Shown here: positions 23,122-46,309 of the stretch, piece by piece | Layout of the letters: every line of letters starts with the position of its first letter | Position numbering within the stretch: position 1 is the stretch's first letter | IMG/VR virus record: IMGVR_UViG_3300028800_000010 | Location: 1 to 64,000 of that record | From: a virus | DNA: 64,000 nucleotides | Direction: 5' to 3' (one strand) | Position numbers and translations under genes: made by a program | The notes under the pieces: model-generated | What the model was told of the DNA's origin: nothing | Database searches by the model: none | The model's input: the letters and a program-made list of their open reading frames with translations, nothing else

Positions 23122-24120
23122 GCGCAAACGTTCAATACGGCATCGGGGCAGCAAGCGACCACGTCGGGTAATGCCCAGTCGAGCTACGCCGCCGCGCAAG
23201 GCGACATCGGCGACTATAAAACCGCTCTCTCGAAATATGCCGCAGAGAACCCCTACGTTCAAGGTGGGCAATATCAGACTGCGGCTAATCAGCAGCTCGC
23301 CGACACGGCCGCTGGTGGCGCTCAGCAAGCCCAGCAGGCGATTACCGGCTCGATGGTCAGGAGCGGGCTGAATCCGACCGCGGCCGTTGCTGCCGGCGAA
23401 CAGGTGGCAGAAAAGAACGCCCAGACACAAATGGACTCCGAGGCTAAAGCCAATCAGTCGCGGCTGCAGGGTCTGGCCGGCTACCAGGGCAACGTGCTCG
23501 ACGCGAGCGCCAAGCCCGAGCAGATGGAGCAGGGCCTCACCCAGACAGAGATGGGCGGCGCCGATAGCGCATTGGGGACCGAGAACCAGGCGGCACAGAC
23601 TCCAAGCTTCTGGCAGGAGCTCGGCCAGGGCGCGATCAGCGGTGCAGGACAATTTGCCGCCAATAAGTGGTGCCCGGCTGAAGGGTCGCTCTACTTACTA
23701 GCAGACGGCCGCGAAACCCCGGTCGAACACCTCAAGGTCGGCGATGAGTTGATGGGAATTGACGGCGACGCTCAGAAGATCGAGTCCATCGAATCAGCAC
23801 TTGCTCGGATCCTCCTAGTGCGTTCCGATCAGGGGCACAAACTCCGCAATTCTTGGACACATGCGTATGCCCTGCCGGGCGGGGGCTTCACCGTTGCAGC
23901 GCGCTCGATGGGCAAAAAGCTCGTTGCCGACCGCGGTCCGGCTCGCGTGATCAGCGTCCAAGATGGCGGCGTAGCCCGTGTCTTCAATGTGATCACCGGT
24001 GGGTCGCACACGTACCGGGCCGATGGAGTCTGGGCCCTAGGCGTTGGCGAAGCTGAGCGCTACGTGAGTATGGATGAATGGCAGCGAATCGGTGATCAGC
24101 TCATGCAGGAGGTGGTCTAA
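23104..24120 (+). CDS. Ejection-type protein ending in a Hint auto-processing domain; probable AUU start
   Basis: 338 residues if started at ATT 23104. The frame is open from 23083 and plainly coding well before the first ATG (23353): the segment from SQSAQTFNTASG through QQLADTAAGGAQQAQ is Gln/Ala-rich like the later part. No ATG, GTG or TTG exists in that frame upstream of 23353, but AAGAGGTG (23092-23099) sits 4-6 bases before ATT, making AUU initiation likely. Residues 1-189 are helical and Gln/Ala-rich like internal virion proteins. Residue 190 is Cys, starting a Hint domain: CPAEGSLYLLADG, PVEHLKVGDELMGIDGD, SWTHAYALPGGG (block B Thr/His), and RVFNVITGGSHTYRADGV (block F). The usual terminal His-Asn is absent. 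Expected chemistry is an acyl shift at Cys190 and release of the N-terminal part. The stop overlaps the next ATG (TAATG). Confidence 0.8.
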   Translation: MTKSQSAQTFNTASGQQATTSGNAQSSYAAAQGDIGDYKTALSKYAAENPYVQGGQYQTAANQQLADTAAGGAQQAQQAITGSMVRSGLNPTAAVAAGEQVAEKNAQTQMDSEAKANQSRLQGLAGYQGNVLDASAKPEQMEQGLTQTEMGGADSALGTENQAAQTPSFWQELGQGAISGAGQFAANKWCPAEGSLYLLADGRETPVEHLKVGDELMGIDGDAQKIESIESALARILLVRSDQGHKLRNSWTHAYALPGGGFTVAARSMGKKLVADRGPARVISVQDGGVARVFNVITGGSHTYRADGVWALGVGEAERYVSMDEWQRIGDQLMQEVV

Positions 24121-25769
24121 TGGCCGGCGACTGGAATACACTTGGGGATCCTTCACAGTTTCAGGGCCTTCCTTTTCCGGCCTCACCGATCACCGCCTCG
24201 GGCGAGGACCCCGATGAGGTGCGCGAACGGCTTGCCGCCCAGGCGCAGATGGGCAACGGCCATGCGGGGAGCGTCGTGCCCGGAACCCCGACCGCCACGC
24301 CTGTACAGCAGGTACAGCCGAAGCTGCCAAACGTCGAGTCCCCGGGCTTCAATGCCGATACGGCACGCCAGTCGATGACCGGCCAGCTCGCCTCGGGCCG
24401 CGACCTGACCCGAACCGCCGACCAGATGCAGCCCGACCCTCAAATTGCCGAACTCGAGCAGAAGAAGATGCAGGACGAGGCCGCGACGCCAAACGCGGCA
24501 AACTACAAGCCCGGCTTCGGCACGCGCCTGCTCCGTGGTTTGAAGGGCGCCGGTCTCGGACTCGCCGAAGGCGGCATCTTCGGGATGGGTGTGGGCGCGA
24601 TCGACCCGGGCCTGGTTCGCGGTGGAACTTCGTACGGCGACCCGACGGACGCTTACGATGCGGCGCTCAACAAGAACAAGCAGCTGGTCGCCCAGGACAC
24701 CGAATCCCTCTCGAATGCCCAGGCCAACTTCAAGCAGGCGCAGGAGCTGAGAGAAAAGCAGCTCGGCGGCTACAAGGACTCTGGCGAAGCCTTCAGGGGC
24801 GCCGGCACGACGGCGACCACTCAGGAGGAAAATGAGACCAAAGGGGCCCAGCTTCCGATCGACCAGGAGAAAGCCGACACGGAGCGAGACAAGGCAAACA
24901 ATGTTCCTGAGCCGAAAACGTACGAGGAGATGGTGCTGCGCGCCCAGACCGAGAAGGATCCACAAAAGCGCGCGCAATATTGGAAAGCTGCAACCGACAT
25001 TCAGAAGGCTGAGGTGCGCAGATTCCAGGCCGGTGCTAACGCCAACGGTCCCGTCGACATCGGAAATACGAAGCTCAGTGGCGATGCGTACCTGCAAACT
25101 TTGCCGGCCGGCATGGGCCCAACCATCAAGGCGATCGCCGAGGGTCGCATGGCGCCCCCTTCGCCGGGCAACCGCAGCAAGCAGGCGCAGGCGCTGCTGA
25201 ACGCATTGAACATCTATGCCCCCGGCTACGATGCCACGAAATATCCGACCTACGCTGCTACGCGGAAGGAGTTCACAGAAGGCAAAATCGGGCAGTCGAT
25301 CAACTCCTTCAACACGTCCCTGAATCACCTCGATCGGCTCGAACAGAACATCCCGGATAACGGATACTTCGAAACTCTCAATGCACTTCGTAACGCAGCC
25401 AGCCCCTCGGGATCGGAGCGGTCACAGAAGCTTGCGGCCTTCGACGCGGACGCCACTGCGGTCGCCAATGAGGTAAGCAAAGCCTACAAGGGCGGTGTGA
25501 TCAGCGAGGGCGAATACAACCACATGAACAGCCTGCTCAGCCGAAGCGCTGCGCCCGCGAAGATGAAGGCCAACATCGCGGAATTCCGCGAACTGCTACA
25601 GGGAAAACTCGAGAATTTCCAGAAGCAGTGGGAATCTGGCATGCCTCCCGGCGCTGTCAGCCCGCTTCAGACGATCCAGGGCTCGGTAACGGGAACCGGG
25701 GGGGGCGGCGGCGGATCGAGCAGTGGGGCTGGTGACGACTGGTTTAAGCAGCATCCGGAGGCCAACTAG
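24120..25769 (+). CDS. Putative ejection (internal virion) protein
   Basis: 549 residues, TAATG-coupled to the Hint protein. The N-terminal 110 residues are Pro/Gln-rich and disordered. Residues about 140-170 are a Gly-rich hydrophobic stretch (RLLRGLKGAGLGLAEGGIF) like the membrane-active segments of ejection proteins. A long helical region rich in Gln/Ala/Lys/Glu follows (SLSNAQANFKQAQELREKQL), then a globular helical part (residues 380-500) and a Gly/Ser tail with nine Gly in eleven residues. Position before a second, larger protein of the same type fits the set of internal proteins that form the DNA-ejection tube in short-tailed phages. Role inferred. Confidence 0.6.
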   Translation: MAGDWNTLGDPSQFQGLPFPASPITASGEDPDEVRERLAAQAQMGNGHAGSVVPGTPTATPVQQVQPKLPNVESPGFNADTARQSMTGQLASGRDLTRTADQMQPDPQIAELEQKKMQDEAATPNAANYKPGFGTRLLRGLKGAGLGLAEGGIFGMGVGAIDPGLVRGGTSYGDPTDAYDAALNKNKQLVAQDTESLSNAQANFKQAQELREKQLGGYKDSGEAFRGAGTTATTQEENETKGAQLPIDQEKADTERDKANNVPEPKTYEEMVLRAQTEKDPQKRAQYWKAATDIQKAEVRRFQAGANANGPVDIGNTKLSGDAYLQTLPAGMGPTIKAIAEGRMAPPSPGNRSKQAQALLNALNIYAPGYDATKYPTYAATRKEFTEGKIGQSINSFNTSLNHLDRLEQNIPDNGYFETLNALRNAASPSGSERSQKLAAFDADATAVANEVSKAYKGGVISEGEYNHMNSLLSRSAAPAKMKANIAEFRELLQGKLENFQKQWESGMPPGAVSPLQTIQGSVTGTGGGGGGSSSGAGDDWFKQHPEAN

Positions 25770-28753: not shown

Positions 28754-29539
28754 TTAGTTAAGCGACATCAGGGTATCAATCAAACGGCTCACATCTTTGT
28801 AGTCACGATTCGATGTTGAGCAAAATGAGCAGTCCGCGGTCGCTTCAATTGGCCCGGAAGTGCTTTGTCTCAGATATTGTGTGTTTGCTAGCAGGTTCCT
28901 TGTTTCTCCATTAAAAAGCATTCGGAGAACTGTTTCTGCACCATTGGAATAGTTCGTTGTAACCGTGATCTCAACGTAACAAATATCGGAGTCGTCACTG
29001 TGGTTCGCCGTAGCTATCTTTACATTGGGGGTGAGCAGCTCTTTCCTCGTGATGTCATCCACGTAGCTATCAGTCAGAGCTCTCTCAAGAGATGAACAGC
29101 TTGGCGCATTTTGCCGGTTGGCTTTTTTCGACGTATCCAAGTCTAGGGAGGACCCTACAAGCTCATAGGAAGACTTGCGACCTCCGCGCGTTACTTGGTA
29201 TTTCTTTCCATCGAAATACAAAGATACCTGCTCGCCAGGAACGGCTTTTTTCATCACATCGTTTCCGCTTGGCCTTAGGACGTAAACGTACTTTCCAGCC
29301 TCCACTGTGTACTGCCGTGTCTCGATATCACTGCAACTACTGCTTACAGAGGAGACCTGAGAAGGCGGTTTTGAAGTATCCCAAGAGGGTGCATACGAAG
29401 GTGTCGCGGAACAAGCTGAGGCGTCGGAAACAGTTCGAAAACTTACCAACCGGCCCTTCTGCAAGTCTGTAGGTTGAGCTACCGCAGCAAGTCCGCAAAT
29501 GAACAAAAAACACGTTGTAATGCGAGATTCAATCATCAT
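28754..29539 (-). CDS. Secreted Acidobacteriota-type protein (moron)
   Basis: 261 residues (ATG 29536 also possible). The signal peptide is TTCFLFICGLAAVAQ. The following region has YTVEAGKYVYVLRPSG and VPGEQVSLYFDGKKYQVTRG, a small beta domain I associate with secreted proteins of Acidobacteriota. Cysteines in CSFCSTS and CSSLE may form disulfides. The gene is leftward within a rightward region and is visibly AT-richer than its neighbours, so it looks like a late-acquired, independently expressed gene acting in the lysogen envelope. Function unknown. Confidence 0.65.
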   Translation of the reverse strand: MMIESRITTCFLFICGLAAVAQPTDLQKGRLVSFRTVSDASACSATPSYAPSWDTSKPPSQVSSVSSSCSDIETRQYTVEAGKYVYVLRPSGNDVMKKAVPGEQVSLYFDGKKYQVTRGGRKSSYELVGSSLDLDTSKKANRQNAPSCSSLERALTDSYVDDITRKELLTPNVKIATANHSDDSDICYVEITVTTNYSNGAETVLRMLFNGETRNLLANTQYLRQSTSGPIEATADCSFCSTSNRDYKDVSRLIDTLMSLN

Positions 29540-29591: not shown

Positions 29592-32288
29592 ATGTCTACA
29601 ACTTCCGTGTCACCGAGTTCGAAAGTACCCTTGCGGCCACCCGCTGGTGCCCTACTCCGGCCGCTCTCCCCGGCGGGCGGCCTGCCGCCGGGCGCATTGT
29701 TGCGGCCACTCGCTGGGCGCATAAGTCATAGATATGACGAGGTGTCAGACGGCGAAAAAGCCAACGTAGTTCCACGTGGAACAGAAAGACAGCGTGCCGA
29801 GGAGTTTCCGCCTATCGGTGAAACCGAAGCCGAGACCGGACGGCCCGTATTGCAGCAGTCTCCCCGGCCCGAGGTGAACCAGGCCGCGGCGACTGCCGAG
29901 CACCCGGCAATTCTCAAAAAACTCCGGGATCTCGTGTCCCCCATCCGGGGCGCGGTCTTGGCCGGCAACCGGGACGAGAAAGATGAAGACCGCCTCGAAG
30001 AGAAGATGGCCGCCGAAGACCAATCGCCGCGCACGGTGCGCGACTATTCGGGCTTCCGCATCGCTGTTGACTCGCCAGCCGCCCACGACGCTGTGGCTGA
30101 TCGACTCCGGCAGCGCTTTGAGGTGCCGAACGAGCAGGATGAGTTTGAGACCGGCGACCCAGAAACCGGCTTCCACGGGCACACGCTCCAGGTGCGCGAA
30201 CCCGGATCGCCGGTCTCGCACGAGGTGCAGGTGCTGCCGCGCGAAGTGGCCGAAGCGGCCGACGATCGCCATGCGCTTTATGAGAAGGCGCGCGAGGGAG
30301 ACGCAGACGCCGCTGCCCAGTTGAAGCAGGCCAACGAAGCCGACTGGCAGAAGTTTCAAGCGCGCAACGCGCAGAACCCGGAAGGAGGCGCCAATGACCG
30401 ACTAACCCAGACCGAGCAACCAACCAAAAAGGCAGCCGAGGGGGCCGAGCCGAAGTTCAAGTTCGGCTCCACTCAGGCCAGCATTCCCGAGGACTCGGAC
30501 GCCGCCGCAGCGCTCAAAACCGCGCGCGAGAAGATTGCGCCCGAGGACCGTGCCGGCGATGTGAATGACGCCAAGGGCGGCCTGGTCGAAGATCCCCACG
30601 TCACGGTGCGCTACGGGATCAAGGGCGACGATGTTGAGGGGATCAAGAAGTTCCTCGAGTCGCAAGCTCCTTTCGAGGCGACGCTGGGCAAGACCGACAA
30701 GTTCCCGGCGAGCGAGCACTCCGACGGTGCCGCGCCCATCATTGCGCCGATCGATGCGCCCGAGATGCACCGCATCCAGGCGGAACTCGAGCAGCATGGC
30801 GAATTCGCGCCGTCGAGTTTCCCGGAATATAAACCCCACGCCACCCTCGGCTATGTGAAGCCTGAGGCCGCCGAGAAGTACGTCGGCATGGGCGATACCG
30901 AAGGCAAGAAGTTCACTGTCAACTCGATCGCCATCTCCGATCGCAATGGCAACCTGACGGAGGTCCCGCTCAAAAGCAAAAAGTCTGAAGGAAACTCTCA
31001 AGAATCTGATAGAACCTCTCAAACACGGAAAGCCCCGGTCCCACCGGACCGCAGGCCGAAGCCTGAGAAATGGAGCAAAGGCGACTGGTTCCTGGTCCGA
31101 GAGCAGGCCCGCGGCAACTATCGCGCGGGTGAAGTCACCTATTTTAACGAAGGTGTCAATGGAGCCAAGCCTGGTGGACGGTCCCGCGTCGGCGAGACGA
31201 AGCTCGATGAGATCCCGCGCGGGGCGCTCCGCATCCTTGGCGCGGACAGAAAAATCAACCCCGTGACCGATCTGCCCGCGGAGGACGCCATCATCGAGCG
31301 GACCGGGAAGAAGCTGCCCGAACTCACTGCGCAACTGATCGAGAAGAATACAGAAGACGGCGTGACCACGCTCGCGACCGATGCAGCCAAGGGGATGTTC
31401 CCGGAATTCAAAGCTGATCCAGTGAAGAATGACCGGCTCGTCTGCGCTTCTGCCAAGGCGGTGCGTGATGCGGCTCTCGAGACGGTACTGGCCGCGCCCG
31501 TTGACCCGAAGCGGTCCGAGGTGCTCATTGGCACGGCATCGCCGGGCTCGGGAAAGACGGCCGGTCTGGTGGGCAGCGGAAACCTGCCGGGAGTAGGCAT
31601 CAAAATCGAGGCTATCGCCGATGACTACAACGAATTCTCTAAGCTGATCCAGGACATCGTTGCTTCTGGCCGTAAGCCCGTGGTGCAGTGGGTTTACGTT
31701 GACGACCCCGCCAAGACGGTCCGCCGCATGTTCCTCCGGGCGGCTGGTCACGAGGGGAGGCCGGGCATCGGGCGGACGGTGCAGCTGAAGTACATGGCCG
31801 ACGCCTATACTGCTATCCCCAGCGTTCTCGAACAGATTCGAGAGCACTTCGGGAGCAAGGTTAAGATACTGGCCGTCGACAACTCGGGGCCTGCGGGTAC
31901 TGCTAAGGTTACTTCAGATATCAACCCGATGCTTGCCGCCCTCCGCCAAAAGTCCTATAATCAAGTGTTCGAGGAGATGACCAATGAAACCCGCAAGCTC
32001 CAGTCTGAAGGGCACTTCGACAGCGACCGCGGAAAGGCCATCCTTGAAGCCGCCCAGACCAGTGACCCGCCCACAAGCGACGAAGCCCAAGGAGGATCCG
32101 CTGGTCGCGGAGCTTCAGGCGGGGTGGGATCGGGCCGCGGAAAAAATGAAGGACCCGAATTGGCAGGTTCCGTACTAAACAGAATTCCTACAAACGACAG
32201 CGCACGGCAAACGGCCGCTCCCAGGAGCGGCCGTTCTGTTGCGTTGGAAAATTTCAAGGAAGCGGCCCGGCGAAAGGGAGTGCGCTAG
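29592..32288 (+). CDS. Polyvalent protein: RelA/SpoT-like + 2H phosphoesterase-like + zeta-kinase-like domains
   Basis: 898 residues. After a low-complexity front (1-100), residues about 130-232 match the RelA/SpoT nucleotidyltransferase pattern: VRDYSGFRIAV (Asp151 a probable metal ligand), HEVQVLP (Glu211, second acidic ligand) and DDRHALYEKA. Residues 335-460 fit a 2H phosphoesterase: PHVTV (His336) and KPHATLGYV (His416). Residues 640-770 carry a P-loop, GTASPGSGKT (Lys655), then IEAIADDYNEF and VVQWVYVDDP with an Arg-rich stretch (VRRMFLRAAGHEGR), matching zeta-toxin-type kinases. Such mixtures of effector domains define phage and plasmid polyvalent proteins, thought to be injected with DNA and to act early on host metabolism. 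The true start may be later (GTG near 29741), since the first 50 residues come from a repeat. A second small gene overlaps its end. Confidence 0.75.
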   Translation: MSTTSVSPSSKVPLRPPAGALLRPLSPAGGLPPGALLRPLAGRISHRYDEVSDGEKANVVPRGTERQRAEEFPPIGETEAETGRPVLQQSPRPEVNQAAATAEHPAILKKLRDLVSPIRGAVLAGNRDEKDEDRLEEKMAAEDQSPRTVRDYSGFRIAVDSPAAHDAVADRLRQRFEVPNEQDEFETGDPETGFHGHTLQVREPGSPVSHEVQVLPREVAEAADDRHALYEKAREGDADAAAQLKQANEADWQKFQARNAQNPEGGANDRLTQTEQPTKKAAEGAEPKFKFGSTQASIPEDSDAAAALKTAREKIAPEDRAGDVNDAKGGLVEDPHVTVRYGIKGDDVEGIKKFLESQAPFEATLGKTDKFPASEHSDGAAPIIAPIDAPEMHRIQAELEQHGEFAPSSFPEYKPHATLGYVKPEAAEKYVGMGDTEGKKFTVNSIAISDRNGNLTEVPLKSKKSEGNSQESDRTSQTRKAPVPPDRRPKPEKWSKGDWFLVREQARGNYRAGEVTYFNEGVNGAKPGGRSRVGETKLDEIPRGALRILGADRKINPVTDLPAEDAIIERTGKKLPELTAQLIEKNTEDGVTTLATDAAKGMFPEFKADPVKNDRLVCASAKAVRDAALETVLAAPVDPKRSEVLIGTASPGSGKTAGLVGSGNLPGVGIKIEAIADDYNEFSKLIQDIVASGRKPVVQWVYVDDPAKTVRRMFLRAAGHEGRPGIGRTVQLKYMADAYTAIPSVLEQIREHFGSKVKILAVDNSGPAGTAKVTSDINPMLAALRQKSYNQVFEEMTNETRKLQSEGHFDSDRGKAILEAAQTSDPPTSDEAQGGSAGRGASGGVGSGRGKNEGPELAGSVLNRIPTNDSARQTAAPRSGRSVALENFKEAARRKGVR
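31984..32178 (+). CDS. Small overlapping gene inside the end of the polyvalent gene
   Basis: 64 residues in a different frame. ATG 31984 has a strong ribosome site, GAGGAG, seven bases upstream. The N-terminal half is Thr/Ser/Pro/Lys-rich and the C-terminal half looks like a real domain (EDPLVAELQAGWDRAAEKMK then DPNWQVPY). In contrast, the polyvalent frame over the same bases is Gly/Ser filler. A hairpin terminator candidate begins 31 bases after the stop. Either both frames are used or the polyvalent frame runs on past its useful end. Confidence 0.45.
   Translation: MKPASSSLKGTSTATAERPSLKPPRPVTRPQATKPKEDPLVAELQAGWDRAAEKMKDPNWQVPY
32210..32235. terminator. Hairpin between convergent units
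   Basis: AACGGCCGCTC and GAGCGGCCGTT form a perfect 11-base stem around CCAG. The hairpin lies just before convergent stop codons (32288 rightward, 32285 leftward). The right side continues CTGTTGCG, so the T-run is weak. Probably a bidirectional terminator for the late genes and the small leftward genes. Confidence 0.6.
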
Positions 32289-33505: not shown

Positions 33506-34189
33506 ATGCCCCCCAGGAAAGATGTGCCGCTCACCGTGCACGAGCAGCGCTTTGTCATTCACTACATTCGCGAAGGAGCCGCTCCCGAAGTCGCCTATAT
33601 CGCCGAGCGCAAGGCGCGCTTGAAGAAGGGCGAGGGCGAGAAGATGCTCCGCCGGCGTCACGTGCAGGAAGAGATCCACCGCCGGAAGATTCTGGTCGAG
33701 TACGAGGAAAACCGCCTCATCGCGAAAGACAACGTCGCGACCGTCCAGCGCGACGACGAGCGCGACCTGGTGACGCTCCATAAGATCGAGTCGGCCCTCG
33801 ACAAGGTCATCGCGCTCGACGCCGAAAAGCACGGGACAACGGTCCTGAAGGCGATCGAGCTGGGGTTGATCTACACCGGATCGATTCGCGACGGCAACAA
33901 GGTCAAGCTCTCGACCATCGACCCGCTCGGCACGGACAAAAACACGAAGCCCGACGACGGGGAGATGAAGCCGCGCGAGGACGGGTTCTATACCTCGATC
34001 TTCGCCAACATGAAGGCCGATGGCGCGGCGGCGCCGCCCGCCGAGCCGGTTGAGCCGGCCGAGCTGATGCCGGCCGAAGACCCGAAGCCCCTGCCGACGG
34101 TCCCCGTGGTCGCGGCCACGCCCCCGAAGCCCGCGCCCAAACCTGCTGCTAAGAAAGAAATCAAGCCGCCTCAGATCGAAATCACGTAG
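33506..34189 (+). CDS. Terminase small subunit
   Basis: 227 residues. LTVHEQRFVIHYIREGAAPE at residues 9-28 is the conserved N-terminal helix-turn-helix start of phage small terminases (LTxxExxFxxxY). A Lys/Arg-rich DNA-binding stretch (AERKARLKKGEGEKMLRRRH) and long helices for oligomerisation follow. The tail from residue 170 is Pro/Ala-rich and ends PPQIEIT. The subunit would recognise the packaging site. The last residues nearly match the end of the next gene product (PPQEIEIT). Confidence 0.75.
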   Translation: MPPRKDVPLTVHEQRFVIHYIREGAAPEVAYIAERKARLKKGEGEKMLRRRHVQEEIHRRKILVEYEENRLIAKDNVATVQRDDERDLVTLHKIESALDKVIALDAEKHGTTVLKAIELGLIYTGSIRDGNKVKLSTIDPLGTDKNTKPDDGEMKPREDGFYTSIFANMKADGAAAPPAEPVEPAELMPAEDPKPLPTVPVVAATPPKPAPKPAAKKEIKPPQIEIT

Positions 34190-34499: not shown

Positions 34500-36272
34500 A
34501 TGTCCACGAAATCCGCAGTGACCGCGGCGGTCCTCTCCGCAGCGCTCACCGGCTGGCTCGCCGACGCGGCCCTGAAGGCCCACGTCGACTGGGGCGCCGA
34601 GTTTGCGCGCATGCGCGAGCTCGCTCCGCTGCCCTTCCCGCAGCTGCAGCCGCCTCCCTTCGATCTCCATCCCCCTGGTTGGGAGCCGATCTGGTGGCCG
34701 ATCAATTCGGCCCAGCAGATGGCCATCAACTGCCGCGCCGAGCTGCTGCTCTTTGGCGGCCAGTCGGGCGGCGGCAAGACGTCGTTCCTCGCGGCCGATG
34801 CCATGCAGGAGTACAAGAATCCCTACCTGCGCTCCCTGATTCTCCGCACCACCAAGACAGAGATGGGCGAAATCTCGGATCAGATGCGGAAGATGTACGA
34901 GCCGCTCGGCGCCAAGTGGAAGCGGCCCAACAAGTTTGAAGACTACGCCTGGGTGTTCCCGAACGGCGGGTCAATCACCCCGGGCTACATCCGCAACGAG
35001 AAGGATCTCAACCGCTACCAGGGCAACCCGAAGTCGCACGTGGGTCTGGACGAGAGCGGCCAGCATCCGGAGAAGCTCATTCGCCGGCTGCTCGGCTGGC
35101 TCGCGGCACCCAGGCGCTCGGGCCTCTTTGTGCGCGCGCGCTTCGGATCGAACCCCGGCGGCCCCGGCCACGGCTGGCAGTCCTCGGTGTTCCTCCGAGG
35201 ACGCTGCCCGGTGCACTACCCGGCCGATCATGCGGATCTGAGCCCGAGCGAGACCAGCGCCTTCCCGGGGCGGGTCTACAAGGGCGCCCGCTGGCCGTCT
35301 GACGGCTCGCCGGTCTACAAGACCACCGCCTTCATTCCGGCCCGCCTGATCGACAACCCGCTCTATGACCGGGTGAAGCTTGAGTCCCTGCTCACCCAGA
35401 CCGCAGATATCCGGGAACAGTTGCTTTGGGGCTGCTGGTGCAACGCCGAAGGCCTCTACTTCCCCTTCCTCCGCCCCGAGTATCAGGTGCCGTTCCAGAC
35501 CATCGACCGCCAGTGGTGGTGGGGGCACTTCATCTCGATCGATTACGGCTACGGCAACTCGGCCGCGGCAGCCGGCCTCTACGCGATCGCGCCCTCGGGC
35601 GTCGTCTACAAGGTCGGGGAGCGCATCGAGAAGAAGATGCAGTCCAAAGAGTTCGCGCGGCGTCTCGTGAAAGATGGGTTCCCGGAAACGCATAACCCGC
35701 GGCAGGGCCCCATGCAGGCCTGGACCCGGAAGCTGCGGCCCCGGGATCCGGAAGGGCCGCGCATCCTCTGGGCCATGTTCGACCCGGCCAACGATCAGCA
35801 CACCGGCACCGGCAAATCGAACTATGAGCAGATGGGCGAAGTCTTTCACGAGGCCGGGATTCCGACGATGCTCGGCGCGCACGACCCGATGGGCAACGCC
35901 CAGAACCTTTACTCCGGCCTGGTCAACCGCGAGCTCGTGACGACGACCGCCTGCCCGTACACCTACAACACGCTGATTTCGCGCGTGGTCGACGATCGCA
36001 AGGCCGTGAAGAAGGAGAAGGGCAACCCCCAGGACGATTGCTATGACGAGACATCGTATGCCTGGAACACGTACAAGCAGGAGAGCGTGAAGCCGGAGCT
36101 GGTGAGCCTGGAACAGGAGATCGACCAGATGCGCAAGGATGGGGTCGACGAGACCTCGATCGCGCGCTACAGCTGGCGCCGGCAGCAGGAAATCCGCGCC
36201 GCTGCGCAGCAGGCCGAACGGGGAATCGCGCTCACCGGGAAACGCATCGGCCGGCGGATCACCCGGCGTTAG
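34500..36272 (+). CDS. Terminase large subunit
   Basis: 590 residues. ATPase: Walker A LLFGGQSGGGKTSF (about residues 80-93), an RTTK adenine-region motif and Walker B-like HVGLDESGQ at about residues 180-188. The C-terminal RNase H-type nuclease starts at SIDYGYGNSAA (about residue 346, first metal Asp), followed by WAMFDPAND and then QDDCYDETSYAWN near residue 510. It translocates DNA into the procapsid and cuts it. The N-terminus (residues 1-75) is a Pro/Leu-rich extension. The start is three bases after the preceding stop. Confidence 0.9.
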   Translation: MSTKSAVTAAVLSAALTGWLADAALKAHVDWGAEFARMRELAPLPFPQLQPPPFDLHPPGWEPIWWPINSAQQMAINCRAELLLFGGQSGGGKTSFLAADAMQEYKNPYLRSLILRTTKTEMGEISDQMRKMYEPLGAKWKRPNKFEDYAWVFPNGGSITPGYIRNEKDLNRYQGNPKSHVGLDESGQHPEKLIRRLLGWLAAPRRSGLFVRARFGSNPGGPGHGWQSSVFLRGRCPVHYPADHADLSPSETSAFPGRVYKGARWPSDGSPVYKTTAFIPARLIDNPLYDRVKLESLLTQTADIREQLLWGCWCNAEGLYFPFLRPEYQVPFQTIDRQWWWGHFISIDYGYGNSAAAAGLYAIAPSGVVYKVGERIEKKMQSKEFARRLVKDGFPETHNPRQGPMQAWTRKLRPRDPEGPRILWAMFDPANDQHTGTGKSNYEQMGEVFHEAGIPTMLGAHDPMGNAQNLYSGLVNRELVTTTACPYTYNTLISRVVDDRKAVKKEKGNPQDDCYDETSYAWNTYKQESVKPELVSLEQEIDQMRKDGVDETSIARYSWRRQQEIRAAAQQAERGIALTGKRIGRRITRR

Positions 36273-43779: not shown

Positions 43780-44066
43780 TACGACGCTCTTTCCTGCTCA
43801 GCTTCCGGTTCGGCTTCGTTCTGGTTGCGCGGGAGGATATCGACCGCCCGCATGTTGGTGCCTTTAGACCGGGGCGGCGCCGGCGTGAACTCGAGCAGCG
43901 ACCCCTCAAACCAGTGCTCGGCCGGGACGGCAAACTTCGAAACGTAGTACTGCGGCGTGTTCGGCCCGGTCGAGAGAAACGCAAAGCCCTTGCCCGCATT
44001 GTGGAACTCGATGATCCGGCCGACCAGCCGGCCGCGCAGATAACCGCGAGAATTGCTACTAGCCAC
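43779..44066 (-). CDS. Cold-shock-domain-like protein
   Basis: 95 residues from GTG 44066, preceded by GGGAGGTCCCC. RLVGRIIEFHNAGKGFAFLS, YYVSKFAVPAEHWFEG and FTPAPPRSKGTNMRAVDI follow the OB-fold plan of cold-shock proteins (GxIxxFNxxKGFGFI...V.F......A..V). The RNP1 core is altered (KGFAFL). It would bind single-stranded RNA or DNA. The tail is acidic. It overlaps the GroEL stop by eight bases, so the operon is tightly packed. Confidence 0.65.
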   Translation of the reverse strand: MASSNSRGYLRGRLVGRIIEFHNAGKGFAFLSTGPNTPQYYVSKFAVPAEHWFEGSLLEFTPAPPRSKGTNMRAVDILPRNQNEAEPEAEQERAS

Positions 44067-45831
44067 GGGGACCTCCCGGAAGTTGCGGCAACTGGATGAT
44101 GGGCGCGCCCTTGTTGGCGGCCGGGTCGAAGTAGACCAGGCAGGAGCTCGTGAGCATGAGCGCGGCGATCGAGGCTGCCTTCTCAAGAGCCACGCGCACC
44201 ACCTTGGCAGGGTCGACGATGCCGGCCTTGACGAGGTCCTCGAATTCGCCGGTTGCAGCGTTGAAGCCGAAGGGCGCAAGCCCCTGCCGTGTTCCCCCGG
44301 ATGCGATCCAAAGATCGTTGATCTCAGCCGCGACCTGGTCCGGATCCTCGCCGGCGTTCGCGGCAATCAGGCGGAGCGGCGCGCGCATAGCCTCGGCGAG
44401 GATGCGGGCTCCGCGGGCGACTTCGGGGAACATCTCGGCCGCGGTCGATTCAAGCTGCCGCGCCAGAATGTAGAGGCACAGGCCCCCACCCGGAACGATG
44501 CCCTCGGCGACCGCGCACCGGACTGCGAGAACAGCATCCTCGGCGGCATCGCGCAGGGCCTTCGCTTCCGATTCCGTCTGGGCGCCAACCTTGAGGACCG
44601 CCACCTGGCCGGCGAGCCGCGCCGCCCGCTCGAGCATGTGCTCCCGGGTCATCGGGTCGGGATGCTCCTTCGACTGCTCGCGCAGGCCCTCGGCGAAGCG
44701 CTTGACGAGCTCCGGGTCATGCCGGTCGCCGGTGCAGCCCTCGAGGATGGTGCGGCGGTTCGAGATGACGACGCGCTTGGCGCTGCCAAGATTTTCGTTG
44801 GTCCAGGCGCCGCGCTTGTCGACGACCCAGCGGGAGAGTGTGTCGCCGCCGTCGAGCTTGAGCACGCGGCCCCCGGTGGCCATGGCCAGATCCTCAAGGA
44901 CCCCGCGCTTCAGGTCCCCGTAGCCCGGCGCGCGCACGATGCAGATTTGAAGATGCCTCTGCGCATGGTTGACCAGGAAGGACTGCGCGGCGTCGGAGCC
45001 GGCGAGAACGTCGTCGGCGACAATCAGCAGAGGCCTCGGGGTGCGCTCACGCTTGCTGCCCTCGAAGTTCAGGCCCGCGCAGTAGGTGAGCAGCGGCCCC
45101 GGATCGTGCAGCGTCGGGTTCTGCGCGACGCCTTGCGAGAGCTGCCGCTCGGTGATCAGGATGTAGGGATTCTCAAGCACAGCGAGACCGTGTTCGCGGT
45201 CGGTGATGAACTCGGGAAAGAGGAACCCGGAATCCATCTGGAACCCCTCGCGGATCTCAACCGACATTTCGGGCTTGCTCGCGTCGTCGATCGTGAACAG
45301 GCCATCCCGGCCGACCTTCTTGATGGCTTCGAGGATGAGTTGGCCAAAGGCCTGGTTCCCGTTGGTGGCGATGGTCGCGACCTGGGCAATCTGCTCGTCG
45401 GTCGGCTCCTGCGCCATGTGCCGGATGCCCACGGCGACCAGCTGCACGGCAGCCTGGATAGCGCGCTGAAGCTGCACGGCACCGTCGCCCGCCTTGACGC
45501 GCTCTAAACCAGCCTTCAGGATGGCGTGCGAGAGGACCGTGGCTGTAGTCGTGCCGTCGCCGGCTTCTTCGACCGTCGCCCGGGCCACGGCCTGGATCAT
45601 CTTCACGGCGGAATTCAACACCGGGTCGGTGAGCTGGATGTTGCGCGCCACGGTGACGCCGTCCTTGGTGACCTGGGGAACGTCGCCGGCGCGATCGATG
45701 ATGACGTTGCAGCCGCGCGGCCCGAGGGTTGACCCGACGGCGAGCGCGATCTGTTCGACGCCCTCGAGCATCTGCTCGTGCAGGTTCTGCTCCTCGCGAA
45801 AGTTCGAAGCGTAAAGAAGTGCCTTACTCAT
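44059..45831 (-). CDS. groEL: Phage-encoded GroEL chaperonin
   Basis: 590 residues, longer than the usual 540-550. The landmarks are present: VGSTLGPRGCNVIID, TKDGVTVARNI, GDGTTTATVLSHAI with the catalytic Asp, IVRAPGYGDLKRGVLEDLA, then EDAVLAVRCAVAEGIVPGGG with the second Asp region, and GFNAATGEFEDLVKAGIVDP. ATP-binding parts are intact while the apical domain is divergent. The usual Gly-Gly-Met tail is absent (it ends PGGPRG). It overlaps GroES by eight bases. It likely folds phage proteins such as the capsid, alone or with its own GroES. Overlap with the cold-shock-like gene shows operon translation. Confidence 0.92.
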   Translation of the reverse strand: MSKALLYASNFREEQNLHEQMLEGVEQIALAVGSTLGPRGCNVIIDRAGDVPQVTKDGVTVARNIQLTDPVLNSAVKMIQAVARATVEEAGDGTTTATVLSHAILKAGLERVKAGDGAVQLQRAIQAAVQLVAVGIRHMAQEPTDEQIAQVATIATNGNQAFGQLILEAIKKVGRDGLFTIDDASKPEMSVEIREGFQMDSGFLFPEFITDREHGLAVLENPYILITERQLSQGVAQNPTLHDPGPLLTYCAGLNFEGSKRERTPRPLLIVADDVLAGSDAAQSFLVNHAQRHLQICIVRAPGYGDLKRGVLEDLAMATGGRVLKLDGGDTLSRWVVDKRGAWTNENLGSAKRVVISNRRTILEGCTGDRHDPELVKRFAEGLREQSKEHPDPMTREHMLERAARLAGQVAVLKVGAQTESEAKALRDAAEDAVLAVRCAVAEGIVPGGGLCLYILARQLESTAAEMFPEVARGARILAEAMRAPLRLIAANAGEDPDQVAAEINDLWIASGGTRQGLAPFGFNAATGEFEDLVKAGIVDPAKVVRVALEKAASIAALMLTSSCLVYFDPAANKGAPIIQLPQLPGGPRG

Positions 45832-46309
45832 GGGGTGTGATTCGTCCTTCGTCGGTGGGGCAGTCAGTGCCCTGGTGTGCAACGCCGCAGCAGCAAACCT
45901 TAGGAGCATCTGCGGGGCCGTAGTTGATGTGGACCTCATCTTGGCGGACGATGAGATAGGCGCCTGGAGGGAAGCCGCGCGGGTCGATGATCTCCTTGCC
46001 GGCGTAGGACGGGAAGCTGATCAGGTCGCCGACCGAAACTTCGGGCGGGACGCGCACCCCGAACTCGGTCATCCGGCCGGGGCCCGCCATGCGCACGATG
46101 CCCTCGGTCGGCCGCTCGGCCTGCGAGCCGGGCCGGGCCATGCCGCGGACCATGTCGTCGACTTCAAGAGGCTCGACGAGGAGCCGGTCGGTGATGGCGG
46201 CGGGAAATGTTTTCGGCGCGCGTTGGAGACCGTCAAAGACTACGTCCGACAACTTTGCACTGTTTGCTGGCGGAAGGTCTTCAGAGTGCTTGTCCATGGG
46301 GTAGGGCAT
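45824..46309 (-). CDS. groES: Phage-encoded GroES-like co-chaperonin with Cys-rich tail
   Basis: 161 residues (ATG 46297 possible). A 35-residue extension precedes the GroES fold: ITDRLLVEPLEVDD, a mobile-loop region (RPTEGIVRMAGPGR), VPPEVSVGDLISFPSYAGKE, then AYLIVRQDEVHINYG. Normal GroES is about 97 residues. A C-terminal extension follows with CCCG and DCPTDEG, four cysteines in about fifteen residues, that may bind metal. Directly upstream of, and overlapping, phage groEL. Confidence 0.88.
   Translation of the reverse strand: MPYPMDKHSEDLPPANSAKLSDVVFDGLQRAPKTFPAAITDRLLVEPLEVDDMVRGMARPGSQAERPTEGIVRMAGPGRMTEFGVRVPPEVSVGDLISFPSYAGKEIIDPRGFPPGAYLIVRQDEVHINYGPADAPKVCCCGVAHQGTDCPTDEGRITPHE

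What the first reader, a model, noticed from the sequence alone, without database searches (positions are those of the whole stretch)
29592..32288. Three-domain polyvalent effector: RelA/SpoT-like, 2H phosphoesterase-like and zeta-like kinase
Within one 898-residue protein I see RelA/SpoT landmarks (VRDYSGFRIAV; HEVQV; DDRHALYE), two H-x-T motifs of 2H phosphoesterases (His336, His416) and a P-loop kinase resembling zeta toxins (GTASPGSGKT). Polyvalent proteins of phages combine such domains and are thought to enter with DNA. This set targets nucleotide signalling, cyclic or RNA phosphates and a small-molecule kinase substrate at once, and follows three ejection-type genes. That points to an injected host-takeover or counter-defence weapon.
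Basis: partly seen in the sequence, partly recalled or inferred. Interest (0 to 1): 0.85.

Follow-up and report, generated by a model that had tools for sequence, protein, structure and literature searches.

The report
Three-enzyme phage polyvalent protein
A virus of bacteria carries one protein made of three linked enzymes (an alarm-nucleotide maker, an alarm-nucleotide cutter and a cell-wall-precursor kinase); it is a short relative of giant phage proteins thought to be shot into the host with the DNA, a known class in which this combination and the exact kinase subtype look new.

Summary
Window 29592-32288 encodes 898 aa with three catalytic domains. (1) RelA/SpoT-like (res ~80-262): AF2/Foldseek matches small alarmone synthetases; donor-site R127, K130, K138, D151, E211 are invariant in 13 homologues, but the acceptor Tyr is Phe194. 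(2) 2H phosphoesterase (~283-470): HxT 336/416 invariant in 26 homologues; best solved relative by sequence is anti-CBASS Acb1. (3) A P-loop kinase (~561-824) of the rewired gonococcal ng_zeta1 subclass (profile vs PDB E=5e-13; Foldseek 2e-12), keeping catalytic Asp D597, K600, P-loop K655 and R728. At the same locus, upstream of the terminase genes, related phages encode ~3,600-aa proteins with RelA-like, zeta and (G001) 2H domains plus ddrB-ParB. In 15 of 28 close 2H loci a RelA-like domain sits in the same protein, in either order, and the domain trees disagree, so modules are reshuffled. Iyer et al. 2017 already listed 2H, RelA/SpoT and zeta-like domains in polyvalent proteins, so this is a new variant of a known class. 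Injection and the three activities are inferred, not shown. Best reading: a virion-carried early-infection effector that removes cyclic-nucleotide alarms and perturbs alarmone and cell-wall-precursor pools.

The parts
29592..32288 (+). 898-aa polyvalent protein (RelA-like, 2H, small domain, ng_zeta1-like kinase, Gly/Ser-rich C-terminal tail)
   Evidence: ORF; homologues at the same locus; domain HMMs
29829..30377 (+). RelA/SpoT-like pyrophosphotransferase domain (res 80-262); R127, K130, K138, D151, E211 conserved, acceptor Tyr replaced by F194
   Evidence: PF04607 in 12 of 13 homologous domains; PDB profile hits are mostly GTP pyrophosphokinases; AF2 + Foldseek small alarmone synthetases; invariant columns; numbering
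30438..31001 (+). 2H phosphoesterase domain (res 283-470); HxT H336/T338 and H416/T418, aromatic F371 and F410
   Evidence: PF13563 1.3e-11; Acb1 9q2g best PDB profile hit 3.8e-6; invariants in 26 sequences; fold
31032..31259 (+). small domain next to the kinase (res 481-556), KOW/SH3-like by eye only; low-confidence model
   Evidence: conserved with G001, G003; pLDDT <50
31272..32063 (+). ng_zeta1-type P-loop kinase (res 561-824): catalytic D597, K600, P-loop 647-656 (K655), R716, R728
   Evidence: residue roles from PMC5923241
32064..32285 (+). Gly/Ser-rich C-terminal tail; the giant homologues continue here for another ~1,800 aa that the window lacks
   Evidence: tblastn of the giants against the window finds nothing further
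33506..34189 (+). terminase small subunit-like gene downstream (context)
   Evidence: PF03592 E=2.2e-5
34500..36272 (+). terminase large subunit (context; used to find related phages)
   Evidence: phrog_979 E=2.9e-26
24120..25769 (+). 549-aa gene upstream, homologue of the gene directly before the giant in G001/G003 (context)

Best explanation
The gene encodes a compact member of the phage polyvalent-protein class. Most likely the protein is packaged in the virion and enters the cell with the DNA (inferred from class and gene position). Inside, the 2H domain, through its two HxT motifs and stacking aromatics, hydrolyses host cyclic oligonucleotide alarm signals and so blunts CBASS-type defence (inferred from Acb1 similarity). 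The RelA-like domain moves pyrophosphate from ATP to a nucleotide or RNA acceptor (donor site shown conserved; acceptor unknown). The ng_zeta1-like kinase phosphorylates UDP-sugars and disturbs peptidoglycan precursor supply, which could ease DNA entry or later lysis (inferred). Shown here: three folds, conserved catalytic residues, locus conservation, modular reshuffling. Not shown: packaging, activities, targets.
For: Folds: AF2 pLDDT 89.8 for res 80-473 and Foldseek to small alarmone synthetases (TMt up to 0.74) and 2H enzymes including Acb1; kinase model to ng_zeta1, then classical zeta and AvrRxo1. Residues: RelA donor site Arg, Lys, Lys, Asp, Glu invariant in 13; 2H H/T/H/T plus two Phe invariant in 26; zeta D56, K59, K115, R181 equivalents kept. 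The Acb1 model is hit by 26/26 2H homologues, best 2.6e-9. Class: giant homologues at the same locus with ddrB-ParB; AAA_34/Helicase_C_4 or SNF2 + methylase domains in other homologues; Tunturi_5 homologue with ART-PolyVal. Iyer et al. 2017 (PMC5512222) define the class and predict entry with DNA.
Against: The window 2H scores higher against the general 2_5_RNA_ligase2 model than against Acb1, and is below Acb1's gathering score; the Glu that contacts adenine in Acb1 (E141) has no obvious counterpart. The RelA acceptor Tyr is Phe. Asn75 of ng_zeta1 is Asp/Glu here, so substrate preference may differ. The window protein itself has no ddrB-ParB, helicase or peptidase domain. No proteomics; host unknown.
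Confidence: 0.45

Rival explanations
1. The 2H domain is an RNA-end or tRNA-repair enzyme: it opens 2',3'-cyclic phosphates made by host anticodon nucleases, and does not touch defence signals.
For: PF13563 (2'-5' RNA ligase superfamily) matches all 26 homologues and is the best match for the window domain; fold hits include LigT, Usb1, CPDase; PHROG 'RNA ligase'.
Against: The closest solved chains by profile are Acb1, YjcG and a poxvirus cGAMP PDE, not LigT; FPEYKPHxT resembles Acb1 around F107-H113; no RNA ligase or polynucleotide kinase seen in the fusions scanned.
Confidence: 0.25
2. The RelA-like domain is not an alarmone synthetase but a tRNA CCA-end pyrophosphorylase (toxSAS-like) or an acceptor-dead nucleotide binder; the protein acts mainly as a host-shutoff toxin.
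For: Donor residues are invariant but the acceptor Tyr is Phe194 in the window and absent at that place in the second clade; Y-to-F is an established crippling change in RSH enzymes and tRNA-modifying relatives exist (PMC11782079). The toxin Tas1 is among the fold matches beside the small alarmone synthetases.
Against: The other five members of the window's own clade keep the Tyr; surface charge could not be tested.
Confidence: 0.3
3. The window protein is a decayed remnant of a giant polyvalent protein and only some domains still work.
For: It lacks ddrB-ParB and about 1,800 C-terminal residues present in G001/G003; Phe194.
Against: The active sites are otherwise intact, the frame is open, and its RelA domain belongs to a different clade from the syntenic one, which points to module exchange rather than decay; compact 665-704 aa 2H-RelA proteins also exist (L029, L031, L036).
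Confidence: 0.15
4. It is a virion structural or morphogenesis protein expressed late; the enzyme folds serve assembly.
For: Sits between the virion block and the terminase genes.
Against: Catalytic residues would not need to be conserved; the domain set varies freely between relatives.
Confidence: 0.07

Closest known systems
Polyvalent proteins (Iyer et al. 2017, PMC5512222), phage type
   Same: Several unrelated enzyme domains in one phage protein next to virion/packaging genes; homologues at the same locus carry ddrB-ParB; 2H, RelA/SpoT and zeta-like domains were all listed there
   Different: The window protein lacks ddrB-ParB, helicase and peptidase; RelA + 2H + zeta in one chain was not found described; zeta domains there were reported for conjugative elements and MuF fusions
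ng_zeta1 toxin of Neisseria gonorrhoeae (6epg/6eph/6epi, PMC5923241)
   Same: Rewired order with catalytic Asp and Lys before the P-loop; D56, K59, K115, R181 equivalents; fold E=2e-12
   Different: No OB-fold domain seen after the kinase, Asn75 is Asp/Glu, part of a multidomain phage protein rather than a toxin-antitoxin pair
Acb1 anti-CBASS nuclease (PMC9117128)
   Same: HxT/HxT tetrad, FPEYKPHxT resembling YPDYRPHIT, an aromatic near the W74 place; best profile match among solved structures
   Different: No clear E141 equivalent, fused domain rather than a ~150-aa free protein, below the Acb1 gathering score
Small alarmone synthetases RelP/RelQ and toxSAS/Tas1
   Same: Fold; donor-site Arg, Lys, Lys, Asp, Glu
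   Different: Acceptor Tyr replaced by Phe194; Ser84 and Arg91 of RelP not kept in the window domain; fused in a phage protein
Tunturiibacter phage Tunturi_5 gp321
   Same: Same 2H subfamily (37% identity) inside a 1,362-aa protein among virion genes
   Different: Partners are ART-PolyVal, SprT-like and GNAT domains; no RelA or zeta found

Membership tests
Polyvalent proteins (phage type) | two or more unrelated catalytic domains in one polypeptide | tested here: met
Polyvalent proteins (phage type) | domain types from the described repertoire (2H, RelA/SpoT, zeta-like kinase; ddrB-ParB in homologues) | tested here: met
Polyvalent proteins (phage type) | delivered with DNA during entry | not testable with these tools
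   needs virion proteomics; only genomic position is known
RelA/SpoT synthetase domain | synthetase fold | tested here: met
RelA/SpoT synthetase domain | ATP-donor and Mg residues (Arg, Lys, Lys, Asp, Glu) | tested here: met
   invariant in 13 sequences; numbering; roles
RelA/SpoT synthetase domain | G-loop Tyr that stacks on the acceptor base | tested here: not met
   Phe194 in the window; Tyr in the other 5 clade members; absent at that place in the other clade
RelA/SpoT synthetase domain | Pfam PF04607 gathering score | tested here: not met
   21.2 bits against 27 for the window domain
2H phosphoesterases | two HxT motifs in the 2H fold | tested here: met
Acb1 | Pfam Acb1 gathering score | tested here: not met
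   24.5 bits against 27 for the window domain
Acb1 | base-stacking aromatics F107 and W74 | tested here: inconclusive
   F410 and F371 align there by sequence; no complex modelled
Acb1 | cleavage of cyclic oligonucleotides | not testable with these tools
   biochemistry needed
ng_zeta1 subclass of zeta kinases | catalytic Asp N-terminal to the P-loop (rewired order) | tested here: met
   D597 before K655
ng_zeta1 subclass of zeta kinases | substrate residues Lys59, Asn75, Arg175, Arg181 | tested here: inconclusive
   K600 and R728 kept; R175 alignment is ambiguous (R716 nearby); Asn75 is D614 (Glu in G001/G003)
zeta toxin-antitoxin systems | adjacent epsilon antitoxin | not tested
   no epsilon search was made; the flanking ORFs are a 261-aa reverse-strand gene and short reverse-strand ORFs

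The most novel reading that the evidence does not exclude
RelA-like and Acb1-like 2H domains (with GGDEF in some relatives) form a recurrent, independently reassembled signal-rewriting cassette carried in phage particles: one domain erases the host's cyclic-nucleotide alarm while the other writes a different pyrophosphorylated signal or blocks tRNA, so that nucleotide-based defences are already countered as the DNA enters.
Probability: 0.2. Interest if true: 0.8.

Novelty: new variant of a known kind. Interest (0 to 1): 0.5.

Why it matters
The anti-CBASS nuclease Acb1 is a separate small phage protein; an Acb1-like domain built into a protein that arrives with the DNA would act before any phage gene is expressed. 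The repeated pairing of RelA-like and 2H domains in shuffled order points to a joint role that can be tested with small purified domains. The ng_zeta1-type kinase in phage proteins extends a toxin subclass described from proteobacterial toxin-antitoxin operons.

Tried and rejected
Single-sequence scans of viral and genome contigs with the whole protein found nothing; plasmids gave no match. RelA and zeta domains alone gave no real hit in cultured phages (the Arthrobacter and Microviridae hits at E>=1 were dismissed). A genome scan with the zeta alignment gave one 23-residue archaeal hit, rejected as chance. PADLOC: nothing. I tested whether the rest of the giant protein is hidden elsewhere in the window: no. 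Glucosyltransferase hits in the kinase fold search (prob <0.6, rmsd >20) were rejected as noise. Promoter and terminator scans were uninformative. The host could not be identified; the Tunturi_5 link only hints at Acidobacteriota.

Full report
1. Observation. The ORF 29592-32288 (+) encodes 898 aa. Pfam finds 2_5_RNA_ligase2 (E=1.3e-11), with weak Acb1 (9e-4) and RelA_SpoT (0.0046) matches. phmmer against the PDB finds the gonococcal Zeta_1 toxin (E=1.2e-5, res 585-786). The record is a 66,636-bp IMG/VR virus contig.

2. Relatives at the same locus. Using the terminase large subunit I reached related phages. Upstream of their terminase genes lies a giant ORF: 3,603 aa in G003; in G001 it appears to be cut by the contig end into 1,686- and 1,855-aa pieces, which were analysed separately. 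The window protein aligns to G001 over res 84-468 (39%) and 480-849 (42%), and to G003 over the RelA part (29%) and the kinase part (42%). The giants carry a ddrB-ParB domain upstream of the kinase (E=1.9e-20 and 1.1e-19). Virion genes upstream are syntenic. The window lacks the rest of the giant.

3. RelA-like domain. Thirteen homologous domains share R127, K130, K138, D151, E211 (P0001 numbering), matching donor and Mg residues of small alarmone synthetases (roles from PMC5794853). 12 of 13 hit PF04607; a profile hits GTP pyrophosphokinases in the PDB (best 0.0011); the model matches B. subtilis SAS1 and SAS2, RelP and Tas1. The acceptor Tyr is Phe194; the other five members of its clade have Tyr there, the other clade has none at that position. 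Tyr-to-Phe is a known crippling change (PMC11782079).

4. 2H domain. Across 26 sequences H58, T60, G64, F93, F132, Y135, P137, H138, T140 and Y143 are invariant (alignment numbering; P0001 H336, T338, G342, F371, F410, Y413, P415, H416, T418, Y421). All 26 hit both 2_5_RNA_ligase2 and Acb1. The profile's best solved relatives are Acb1 (9q2g, 3.8e-6), YjcG, Acb1 7t26 and penguinpox cGAMP PDE. F410 falls where Acb1 has F107 and F371 near W74, both stacking residues (PMC9117128); this mapping is by sequence only.

5. Kinase domain. A profile of three homologues finds only ng_zeta1 among solved structures with significance (E=5.2e-13); Foldseek agrees (2e-12), then classical zeta and AvrRxo1. In ng_zeta1 two sequence blocks are swapped compared with other zeta toxins (PMC5923241), and Asp56 and Lys59 precede the P-loop Lys115. 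The window protein has D597 and K600 before K655, in the same order. R181 corresponds to R728; R175 is ambiguous; N75 is D614.

6. Modularity. The loci were picked by peptide patterns that lie in or just beside the 2H domain, not in the RelA domain. Of 28 places with a strong 2H hit (E<1e-20, window included), 15 also hold the RelA-like domain in the same protein: RelA-2H, RelA-(gap)-2H, or 2H-RelA (a few loci are near-duplicates). GGDEF lies in five of these proteins, with a degenerate xGDEF motif. The RelA tree puts the window with L029/L031/L036/L039/L042 (99/99) and its syntenic neighbours G001/G003 in the other clade, while the 2H of L029/L036 groups with L040 (99/95), whose RelA is in the opposite clade. 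Modules are therefore re-paired repeatedly. The window's RelA branch is long (1.43), so its exact place within its clade is unsure.

7. Known background. Iyer et al. 2017 list 2H, RelA/SpoT and DdrB-ParB as phage-type polyvalent domains, predict that 2H counters nucleotide signalling, and mention zeta-like kinases in conjugative elements and MuF fusions. So the kind is known; the combination, the ng_zeta1 subclass and the RelA-2H pairing pattern are the new parts. A text search found no paper that joins them; the library holds open-licence papers only.

8. Mechanism. The committed reading is in Best explanation. Shown: folds, residues, locus, shuffling. Inferred: delivery, substrates, benefit.

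Noticed in passing
window 44059-45939 (-): Phage-encoded GroEL (phrog_5725 E=1.6e-115), conserved in G001 (59%) and L040 (40%).
   Followed up: partly
L007/L017 and L006, L008-L010 terminase ORFs: TerL of relatives is ~923 aa against 590 in the window, with a ~330-aa insertion near the Walker A motif, possibly an intein; the window copy lacks it.
   Followed up: partly
window 23353-24120 (+): Virion-block gene whose first 62 residues are conserved in G001/G003, followed by a Hint-type domain (Hom_end_hint E=2.1e-5), possibly a self-processing element or remnant.
   Followed up: no
window 28754-29539 (-): 261-aa gene on the opposite strand just before the polyvalent gene, with a hydrophobic signal-like N-terminus; no PHROG match; looks like a moron.
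   Followed up: partly
L024, L026, L037, L039, L041: GGDEF-like domains (H/K/S-GDEF motif) beside 2H and, in L026 and L039, RelA domains in large phage proteins; related GGDEF proteins occur in Pseudomonas and Bordetella phages.
   Followed up: partly
L047:3371-20263: A 5,630-aa ORF with a 2H domain and an HELTH zinc motif, the longest seen here.
   Followed up: no
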